From Prochlorococcus sp. AG-409-K04 (GTDB lineage Bacteria; Cyanobacteriota; Cyanobacteriia; PCC-6307; Cyanobiaceae), in assembly GCA_003215555.1 (NCBI GenBank), contig QCKE01000002.1, positions 62,001 to 126,000 on the forward strand: a DNA stretch of 64,000 bases. The letters run 5' to 3'. Shown here piece after piece: positions 61,642 through 62,790 of this stretch (positions within the stretch are counted from its first letter, which is position 1; every line of letters starts with the position of its first letter). The notes below the pieces were generated by a model. That model had not been told where the DNA came from. It did not search any database and saw only the letters and a list, made by a program, of their open reading frames with translations. The position numbers were made by a program, and so were the translations under genes.

Positions 61642-61755
61642 TGACAGTTGAGATGCATCTAAAGAATTGAGGTAGGGATTTAAATTGAGAAACTTTTCTT
61701 TTGTTCATACAACCTTAATATATTTTTAATCAGTTGGTTTAGAGTTTGGTCTTTG

Positions 61756-62115
61756 ATGAAATTTCAACTAATACATATTGGCATCAAAGAAAAAAGGTTA
61801 AAAGGCTTTAGGTATAAGCGTTTAATTAATTCTGGGATTTTTAGAGGTAACGATACACGTCAAAAATTAATTGATTGCCAAGGCCCATTTCATGGCTGGA
61901 CGAATGCTTCTGCTAAGAATTGGGTTTACGCAAGAGTGAGGGAGCAAAAGGAAGGTAGAAAAGTACACATAGTGTGTGATTGTTGCGATACAAGATGCAT
62001 GTCTAGTAGTTGTGAACATACATTAATGGATAAAAATACTGAAAACAGAAGAAATCCCAATTGCTATGGACAAGAACTGGTAGATTTGATTATTGATTTA
62101 GCTAAACAAAATTAG
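61756..62115 (+). CDS. Small Cys-rich protein, unassigned
   Basis: A 119-residue protein from ATG 61756 (MKFQLIHIGIKEKRLKGF); a TTG at 61753 adds one Met. It is basic in the first half (KRLKGFRYKRLINSGIFRG). A CHx-like cluster of Cys residues lies at about 71-86 (VCDCCDTRCMSSSCEH), then a hydrophobic C-terminal helix (GQELVDLIIDLAKQ). CDCC/RC/SC-H can bind a zinc or a small iron-sulfur cluster. No homologue is recognised from memory. Codon use looks like the neighbours. It starts 114 bases past the divergent radical SAM gene. Confidence 0.55.
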   Translation: MKFQLIHIGIKEKRLKGFRYKRLINSGIFRGNDTRQKLIDCQGPFHGWTNASAKNWVYARVREQKEGRKVHIVCDCCDTRCMSSSCEHTLMDKNTENRRNPNCYGQELVDLIIDLAKQN

Positions 62116-62329
62116 TTCTTGGTTAACAGATGTTTCTTATTAAATATCTTTAATAGAAAGGTTTATTCATTTTTTTTAATTTTTAAAAGACTTTCTAATA
62201 CCTTTGACCACAAACGAATTCCTTCGATTACTTCAAACTTCTTATTATCTCCCTATGCGAATGAAAATGCAATGCGCATAAAAGCTGATTGCGTTGAGAG
62301 GGTGACAAGGGTAAAAATATGAATATCGA

Positions 62330-62651
62330 ACTCAGAGGCGCCTTATGACGGTAGACACTCCACCTGAGTATTTGCTTGAAGCAGACTGACTTCTGGCTCC
62401 TGCTCCAACAGTCTCAATAATCAGTGGGCTTTCGTCTGAAGCGACAAGGATCAATGATTTAGGTGCGTCAATTCAGTCGATACTCCTCTTGCATCGTTTA
62501 GGTGCCCTTATAGGAGAATAAGCCTAACCCCTAGAAACTTGGCCCCAGGTGCCTGTATCCAGAAGCTTCTCAACTCTCCTGATTAATTGTTGCTAAGCAT
62601 TGGTAAATAAAACGATCAGCAAGAAAGGAGCTCTTTTTGAGCTCCTTTCTT
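62330..62651 (+). ncRNA. Candidate structured small RNA ending at a rho-independent terminator
   Basis: The stretch contains long-range pairing: GGCGCCT (62337-62343) with AGGTGCC (62500-62506), then ACGGT (62347-62351) with ATCGT (near 62494-62498), GAGTAT (62375-62380) with ATACTC (62479-62485), and GACTGA (62384-62389) with TCAGTC (62473-62478). They nest into one long interrupted hairpin with an asymmetric central bubble. That layout resembles 6S RNA, but I cannot confirm the family. No tRNA-like arm (GGTTCGAATCC), RNase P core or tmRNA tag is present. The exact ends are not known; the region from 62510 to 62620 may belong to a longer precursor. Confidence 0.4.
62621..62651 (+). terminator. 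Strong rho-independent terminator
   Basis: A perfect 13-base-pair stem AAGAAAGGAGCTC / GAGCTCCTTTCTT around a TTTTT loop, followed by AATTTTTAC. The T-run points to termination of a plus-strand transcript from the 62330 region. The minus-strand tRNA-Thr transcript would also run into this hairpin. Confidence 0.85.
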
Positions 62652-62718
62652 AATTTTTACTATTTTTTCTAGAAGATATTTTTTGTATGGACTTTCACTA
62701 GTAAACTAGATTTGAGAA

Positions 62719-62790
62719 TGCCGGTGAGCGGAATTGAACCGCTGACCTACTGGTTACGAATCAGTTGCTCTACCTCTGAGCTACACCGGC
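62719..62790 (-). tRNA. tRNA-Thr (anticodon CGT)
   Basis: On the minus strand: acceptor GCCGGTG with CACCGGC, discriminator A; D arm GCTC-AGAGGTA-GAGC; anticodon arm ACTGA-TTCGTAA-CCAGT with CGT; T arm AGCGG-TTCAATT-CCGCT. The fifth pair of the anticodon stem (31-39) is A opposite C, an unusual mismatch. Everything else is regular. The CCA end is not encoded. Confidence 0.95.

What the first reader, a model, noticed from the sequence alone, without database searches (positions are those of the whole stretch)
62300..62655. GC-rich, long-range-paired region with strong terminator: probable unassigned ncRNA
In a low-GC genome the stretch at 62330-62520 stands out by composition and has a series of nested complementary blocks (GGCGCCT/AGGTGCC, GAGTAT/ATACTC, GACTGA/TCAGTC) that form one long interrupted hairpin with a central bubble, followed at 62621 by a perfect 13-base-pair terminator. 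There is no usable protein frame. The plan is like 6S RNA but no family signature settles it. Three AGGTGC repeats (62470, 62500, 62560 areas) offer alternative pairing partners and may indicate switching.
Basis: partly seen in the sequence, partly recalled or inferred. Interest (0 to 1): 0.7.

Follow-up and report, generated by a model that had tools for sequence, protein, structure and literature searches.

The report
Abundant ocean RNA hiding a micro-gene
The stretch is the window's copy of Yfr103, an RNA reported as the most abundant one in some marine picocyanobacteria, and comparison of many species suggests that this supposedly non-coding RNA also carries a tiny conserved protein-coding frame at its start.

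Summary
The ncRNA is real and on the + strand, but it is not 6S. It is the window's copy of Yfr103 (290-328 nt, function "enigmatic", PMC5069720). Support: conservation in the genus; a palindrome placing +1 at about 62324; a terminator at 62621-62651; 16 of 38 base pairs with compensatory changes over 48 sequences. A core profile finds seven loci in the genome whose length (recalled) is that of CC9605, where the paper counts seven paralogs.

New here: the RNA starts like an mRNA. A ribosome-binding site and an in-frame start precede an 8-25-codon frame, usually with D-T-P-P-E, in 70 of 70 BLAST-chosen copies with data. Changes in that five-codon core fall on codon positions 1/2/3 as 4:2:18. 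MED4 Yfr8, described as ncRNA, has the same promoter spacing and a like frame (MIDSPPEI) before a largely different body. A third high-light RNA has MIDSLPEISE. Against: 2 of 7 CC9605 copies are frameshifted, and the ribosome-binding site is predicted mostly paired. Translation is inferred, not shown; the function is open.

The parts
62269..62292 (.). promoter palindrome GCAAT...ATTGC (possible regulator site), centre 43.5 nt upstream of +1
   Evidence: both halves in 62 of 71 rows (of the 9 others, two are cut by a contig end); matches the -29 to -58 palindrome reported for Yfr103 (PMC5069720); same centre-to-+1 offset in MED4 Yfr8
62312..62318 (+). -10-like box TAAAAAT (inferred)
   Evidence: position relative to +1; aligned with TAATGAT / CAAAGAT in relatives
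62324..62655 (+). Yfr103 RNA, about 330 nt (5' end inferred, 3' end at the terminator)
   Evidence: palindrome offset; terminator hairpins; literature length 290-328 nt
62334..62338 (+). Shine-Dalgarno-like AGAGG
   Evidence: GGAGG (40) or AGAGG (30) in 70 of 70 rows with data, 4-9 nt before the start codon
62345..62389 (+). micro-ORF, 14 codons, MTVDTPPEYLLEAD*
   Evidence: in-frame start in 70 of 70 rows; changes 4:2:18 at codon positions 1:2:3 of D-T-P-P-E; in-frame length changes M(T)VD / MDD / MTAD (rows selected by motif)
62378..62382 (+). P1 5' arm GAAGC, overlapping the last codons of the micro-ORF
   Evidence: pairs with 62565-62569, 97.9% of cells paired, A-U to C-G double changes in 4 sequences; stop codon ends from 4 nt before to 16 nt after the start of this arm in 67 of 70 rows
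62565..62569 (+). P1 3' arm GCTTC
62399..62409 (+). near-invariant internal-loop strand CCTGCTCCAAC; CCTG pairs with CAGG 62546-62549 (P2)
   Evidence: CCTGCTCCAACA in 71 of 71 BLAST-chosen rows; A1 rows were selected for this motif and for GCCCCAG, so P2 is invariant there partly by construction; broken in two CC9605 copies; high-light relatives carry ACTG with CAGT (sequences)
62434..62478 (+). hairpin P4 with the Prochlorococcus-type loop AAGGATCAATGATTTAGG
   Evidence: 7 of 9 pairs with double changes; the hairpin is at the 3' end of the RNA in high-light relatives
62482..62516 (+). hairpin P5 with apical stem GCATC/GGTGC
   Evidence: 4 of 5 outer pairs with double changes; GCAYCG..AGGTGCCC in 71 of 71 rows
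62540..62549 (+). conserved TGGCCCCAGG, 3' side of the P2 internal loop
   Evidence: GGCCCCAG in 71 of 71 rows
62621..62651 (+). intrinsic terminator, symmetric, so it may also serve the tRNA-Thr on the - strand (62719-62790)
   Evidence: sequence-varied terminator hairpins in relatives

Best explanation
The element is the window's yfr103 gene. From a promoter with a conserved palindrome it makes an RNA of about 330 nt in two parts: a 5' mRNA-like arm (start codon at +22, ribosome-binding site, micro-ORF of usually 8-14 codons) and a multi-helix domain closed by P1 and ended by a terminator. Shown here: conservation, structure by covariation, codon-position bias, and a like arm on Yfr8 and a third high-light RNA. 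Inferred: ribosomes initiate on the arm and terminate at the base of P1 (the stop lies within -4 to +16 nt of the P1 5' arm in 67 of 70 rows), so that translation both yields a micropeptide and holds or opens the structured domain, stabilising it or setting its activity. The structured domain, with its conserved CCTGCTCCAAC / TGGCCCCAGG loop, would carry the main dosage-dependent function, probably binding a protein. Likelihoods: identity as Yfr103 0.97; selected, translated micro-ORF 0.8; ribosome-coupled RNA as its main mode 0.35.
For: Identity: features match PMC5069720 (passages). RCC307, a strain listed there, is hit by name at two loci. Seven R1 matches, the same number as the reported paralogs, in a 2,510,659-base genome, the length recalled for CC9605. 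Structure: 94.7% of cells paired, 16 pairs and 69 cells with double changes against shuffled means of 6.4 and 18.2. Micro-ORF: start in 70 of 70 rows (14% of shuffled leaders; rows are related); 4:2:18 by codon position, p = 4e-5, and 0 of 147 overlapping fifteen-column stretches of the body as periodic. The frame is kept in 47 high-light loci (some from the same genome; selected by leader and ATG) and in 6 Yfr8 loci as MIDSPPEI* (selected by leader and ATG). In one search bases 25-80 of the Yfr8 query also match the third RNA's locus (22 such matches listed, one of them from base 19). The mapped 5' end of Yfr8 (339952, PMC2518516) lies 43.5 nt from its palindrome centre, the offset reported for Yfr103. 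Dosage: near-identical paralogs (98.9-100% in the three pairs compared). Stability: Yfr8 decay 19.7 min against a genome median of 2.6 and an ncRNA median of 3.3 (PMC2897979).
Against: Two of the seven CC9605 copies carry a one-base deletion in the micro-ORF block and a damaged CCTGCTCCAACA; they may be decaying. Other copies change the motif (MRDDGPTEQ..; MIDSLPA..), so polyproline stalling cannot be general. The peptide C-terminus is unconstrained. The Shine-Dalgarno region is predicted mostly paired (mean unpaired probability 0.22 free, 0.26 constrained), partly with the TPPE codons themselves, so part of the conservation could be RNA pairing. The 71 rows were picked from the better BLAST matches to a query that contains the frame, which favours copies that keep it. 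No ribosome, peptide or mutant data were available. BLAST found no copy in 98 of 400 family genomes, 52 of 251 well-assembled ones; divergence, incompleteness or true absence were not told apart.
Confidence: 0.6

Rival explanations
1. Purely non-coding structural or regulatory RNA: the 5' arm is conserved as RNA (for example an arm in which GAGG pairs with CCACCTGAG), and the reading frame is a by-product.
For: CCACC and the AG of GAG are invariant at nucleotide level in A1. The model pairs SD columns with columns 39-45. Two CC9605 copies lost the frame.
Against: The D and T codons, largely outside that pairing, vary at third positions (1:0:9 and 2:2:4). The start codon is kept in 70 of 70 although its distance to the SD varies from 4 to 9 nt. 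High-light RNAs changed the nucleotides (CTGCCTGAA, CCGCCTGAA) but kept a frame.
Confidence: 0.2
2. An mRNA for a functional micropeptide, in which the 3' domain only stabilises the message and ensures its abundance.
For: Codon-level constraint on D-T-P-P-E. A like arm precedes different bodies (Yfr103, Yfr8, third high-light RNA).
Against: The 3' domain is more elaborately conserved than a stabiliser needs. Only 5-7 residues are conserved, the C-terminus is free, and motif variants exist.
Confidence: 0.2
3. 6S-like regulator of RNA polymerase.
For: Length and abundance only.
Against: Separate 6S at C5:48463-48643; no 6S match here at E<=10; multi-branched fold rather than one long hairpin with a central bubble.
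Confidence: 0.02
4. Leader (attenuator or riboswitch) of a downstream gene.
For: A terminator follows the structured domain.
Against: The neighbours differ between copies: tRNA-Thr on the opposite strand in the window and in 6 of 15 relatives' loci, no tRNA found in the other 9. Paralogs sit at scattered sites, and it was reported as a discrete 290-328 nt RNA.
Confidence: 0.02

Closest known systems
Yfr103 (marine picocyanobacterial ncRNA; PMC5069720, passages read)
   Same: length, palindrome position, multiple paralogs, strain distribution, conserved structure
   Different: nothing that excludes membership; the passages seen there mention no micro-ORF in Yfr103 and name no high-light strain, whereas here a micro-ORF and a rearranged high-light relative are found
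Yfr8 of Prochlorococcus MED4 (PMC2518516, section 7 and passages read)
   Same: 5' arm: palindrome at the same offset, GTTGAGTT leader, GGAGG, micro-ORF MIDSPPEI*; stretches like GCGACAAG (by eye)
   Different: rest of the body differs; strong BLAST matches only in genus g17 in the sample searched; antisense RNA Yfr9 overlaps it (PMC2518516)
Bifunctional RNAs (SgrS/SgrT, RNAIII/delta-haemolysin; named in PMC2518516)
   Same: short frame within a structured RNA
   Different: the frame here has 8-25 codons with only 5-7 conserved residues; RNA targets unknown
tmRNA (works-like comparison only; recalled)
   Same: mRNA-like part joined to a structured domain; ribosome contact inferred
   Different: no tRNA-like domain, no tag frame; ARAGORN and Rfam find no tmRNA here
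6S RNA (RF00013)
   Same: abundant housekeeping-type RNA of similar size
   Different: different fold; separate 6S gene in the genome

Membership tests
Yfr103 | discrete RNA of 290-328 nt with its own promoter and terminator | tested here: met
   about 330 nt from the inferred +1 to the terminator; transcription itself not testable here
Yfr103 | imperfect palindrome at -29 to -58 of +1 | tested here: met
   62269-62292, centre -43.5 if +1 is 62324; the same offset is found with the mapped 5' end of Yfr8. +1 of the window copy is itself inferred from the palindrome
Yfr103 | seven paralogs in Synechococcus CC9605; homologs in listed strains such as RCC307 and SS120 | tested here: met
   7 R1 matches in a genome of 2,510,659 bases (length of CC9605 recalled); RCC307 named by the tool; SS120 by recalled length (G001)
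Yfr103 | published sequence and consensus structure (Figure S3 / Voigt 2014) | not testable with these tools
   no look-ups in supplements allowed, 2014 paper not held
Yfr103 | very high expression | not testable with these tools
   no RNA-seq available; literature only
6S RNA | match to the 6S covariance model | tested here: not met
   no 6S match at E<=10; the genome's 6S is elsewhere
tmRNA | tRNA-like domain and tag frame | tested here: not met
Bifunctional (dual-function) RNA | selected reading frame within a conserved structured RNA | tested here: met
   exceptions
Bifunctional (dual-function) RNA | peptide made and each part functional on its own | not testable with these tools
   needs profiling and mutants
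Yfr8-like RNAs sharing the 5' arm | like arm (palindrome offset, SD, M-I-D-S-P-P-E) | tested here: met

The most novel reading that the evidence does not exclude
Yfr103, Yfr8 and a third high-light RNA form one family of ribosome-engaging RNAs. Initiation on a portable SD-plus-micro-ORF arm, ending at the foot of P1 in Yfr103, lets translation status control the structured domain, so that the most abundant transcript of these picocyanobacteria acts as a translation-state sensor or ribosome reservoir.
Probability: 0.2. Interest if true: 0.85.

Novelty: new variant of a known kind. Interest (0 to 1): 0.6.

Why it matters
[quoted passage not shown] A conserved micro-ORF, an architecture supported by covariation and a link to Yfr8 would turn 'enigmatic' into testable questions: is it translated, does translation open P1, and what binds the conserved internal loop? 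It would also extend the family to high-light Prochlorococcus, where that passage names no homolog.

Tried and rejected
Single-sequence folding: uninformative. 6S, tmRNA, RNase P, SRP: no match. A second mini-frame ATG-ATT-TAG in the P4 loop: rejected, because relatives carry ACG or lose the stop (alignment). A GTG frame after the first AGGTGC: rejected, frame broken in L010. Polyproline stalling as the general mechanism: weakened by DGPTE and DSLPE variants. Leader GGCGCC with GGTGCC pairing as a switch: 89% of cells paired but no double change; left open. Phage carriage: no match in the phage collection; one exact 19-mer absent from viral contigs, a narrow test. A first helix P3 was off by one column and corrected. 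One search selected rows by motif and mis-anchored 12 high-light rows ('no start'); re-read the high-light rows. A parsimony count on a regex-selected set (4:2:22) was replaced by the BLAST-chosen set (4:2:18). Outside the family, 1 weak R1 match (G486, E 7.6e-4) was judged chance, though three genomes inside the family match as weakly (E 2.8e-4 to 9.2e-4); of G486 only an unrelated 100-base stretch was fetched (L202). Papers: PMC5069720 passages; PMC2518516 section 7 and passages; PMC7368042 outline and part 1 of section 9; PMC2897979 passages. 'Not in print' means only that searches of this library, seen as listings, showed no report of the frame; Voigt 2014 and all supplements were not seen.

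Full report
1. What is there. The region 62260-62570 has a match in 8 of 13 genus relatives, including all three well-assembled ones. Of the 9 relative loci, 6 are syntenic (tRNA-Thr and infB side), two copies of one genome lie elsewhere, and one ends at a contig edge. In 7 of 9 loci the element aligns on its own at 84-87%, against 80-82% for infB in the four of these that hold it. The other two merge with flanks; they are 88% (infB 82%) and 82% (infB 83%). Within the family, 302 of 400 genomes have a BLAST match at E<=0.01, 199 of 251 well-assembled ones. With a 73-position profile (R1; 5 base pairs, so mostly a sequence profile; rows selected by two core motifs), 62 of 388 class genomes match, 61 of them in the own family; the one outside is weak. 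Copy number is 1 to 8 in the matching genomes. The three paralog pairs compared are 98.9-100% identical over 431-620 bases, which fits concerted evolution or recent duplication.

2. Identity. PMC5069720 (passages) describes Yfr103: 290-328 nt, seven paralogs in Synechococcus CC9605 making 55.2% of its mdRNA-Seq reads, homologs in SS120, NATL1A/2A, MIT9303/9313, RCC307 and others, an imperfect palindrome at -29 to -58, function enigmatic. Here the palindrome is at 62269-62292, the RNA is about 330 nt, RCC307 is hit by name at two loci, and the genome of 2,510,659 bases (length recalled as CC9605) has seven R1 matches. I therefore file the element as Yfr103.

3. Structure. On 48 aligned sequences (A1; chosen from 59 found by the motifs CCTGCTCCAACA and GCCCCAG; 11 near-duplicates or rows with long insertions were left out) a structure of P1 (GAAGC/GCTTC and CTG/CAG), P2 (CCTG/CAGG, CC/GG), P3, P4 and P5 has 94.7% of 1824 cells paired. 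Sixteen of 38 pairs have a double change (shuffled mean 6.4), with 69 double-change cells (18.2), reached by 0 of 500 shuffles. Slid versions pair 28-41%. P2 never varies in A1, partly by construction; the high-light relatives carry ACTG with CAGT there (sequences), a single supporting change. In the 71 BLAST-chosen rows CCTGCTCCAACA, GGCCCCAG and GCAYCG..AGGTGCCC are present in 71 of 71. Two CC9605 copies break the first.

4. The micro-ORF. The 71 rows are the window, 9 genus loci, 21 top loci and 40 regions I picked from its listed matches to spread over genera; none was chosen for a frame, but all are among the better matches to a query that contains it. One row is cut by a contig end. All 70 others have GGAGG or AGAGG, and all 70 have an in-frame start (65 ATG, 5 TTG) 4-9 nt later; shuffled leaders keep one in 14% (rows are related, so this is not a probability). 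Lengths are 8-25 codons, 67 of 70 between 8 and 14. The stop ends from 4 nt before to 16 nt after the start of the P1 5' arm in 67 of 70, and 37-49 nt after it in three. In the D-T-P-P-E block, parsimony changes at codon positions 1:2:3 are 4:2:18 (p = 4e-5). None of 147 overlapping fifteen-column stretches of the body reaches a comparable bias. Length changes before the block are in frame (MTVD, MVD, MDD, MTAD, rows selected by motif). In 47 high-light loci, selected by leader and ATG and some from the same genome, the frame reads MIDSLPEISE (39), MIDSLPAISE (5) or three single variants. Against: of the seven CC9605 copies five keep a frame, namely MTADTPPEQIPEAD, MRDDGPTEQTSEAS, MRDDGPTEQIQEAD twice and MTDDTPPQQTKEAD (read from the sequence). 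Two, alike where printed, have a one-base deletion in the block and a damaged CCTGCTCCAACA.

5. Link to Yfr8. The MED4-length genome (1,657,990, recalled) at the published coordinates of Yfr8 (339952..340241, PMC2518516 Table 1) reads GTTGAGTTAGGAGG... ATGATTGATAGTCCGCCTGAAATTTAG: MIDSPPEI*. Its mapped +1 lies 43.5 nt from the centre of its palindrome, the same offset as reported for Yfr103, which puts +1 of the window copy at 62324. Yfr8-like DNA matched 30 of 300 family genomes; 23 strong matches are listed, all in genus g17, and six genomes outside g17 match only weakly (E 5e-4 or worse). In the same call bases 25-80 of the query match the third RNA's locus in 22 listed places (in one the match starts at base 19). 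PMC2518516 (section 7 and passages) lists Yfr8 as an ncRNA and reports peptide frames for Yfr6 and Yfr9. Yfr8 decays slowly (19.7 min against a median of 2.6; PMC2897979). A third high-light RNA (MED4-length genome at 979,808-980,211) has the arm, the P5-P2 core, and the P4 hairpin with its AAGGATCAATGATTTAGG loop moved to the 3' end.

6. How it may work. Shown: a conserved promoter palindrome, a conserved SD and frame under codon-level constraint, a structured domain whose outer helix P1 begins where the frame ends, and terminator hairpins. Inferred: translation of the arm ends at the foot of P1, so ribosomes can protect the 5' end or hold P1 open, while the conserved internal loop binds a partner. 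The SD region is predicted largely paired (mean unpaired 0.22 free, 0.26 constrained, over 48 sequences), partly with the TPPE codons. This could be a regulatory hairpin or could mean little translation. The micropeptide itself may be functional, but only 5-7 residues are conserved.

7. Verdict. What is new is the evidence that its 5' arm is an mRNA-like module, with like arms on Yfr8 and a high-light relative.

Noticed in passing
L073, L078 and other high-light loci: In genus g17 the P4 hairpin with loop AAGGATCAATGATTTAGG lies at the 3' end of the RNA instead of the middle, with different stems around a conserved loop, which suggests a portable binding module.
   Followed up: partly
MED4-length genome 339887-340241 (L166): By the published coordinates, the antisense RNA Yfr9 (complement 339887..340176) covers the promoter palindrome (339896-339921), leader and micro-ORF of Yfr8, so it could block the arm.
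   Followed up: no
G097:C1:429339-440224 and other g56 genomes: Where two copies are listed on one g56 contig they lie 4.5-26 kb apart, mostly 10-12.6 kb; in the one pair compared the identity runs past the RNA (620 bases), a possible recombination or duplication boundary.
   Followed up: partly
window 62621-62651 and 62719-62790: The terminator is symmetric and may also end the tRNA-Thr(CGT) transcript coming from the opposite strand.
   Followed up: no
window 61753-62115 (+): A 120-residue ORF with several cysteines (DCCDTRCMSSSCEH...) lies upstream; it was not identified.
   Followed up: no
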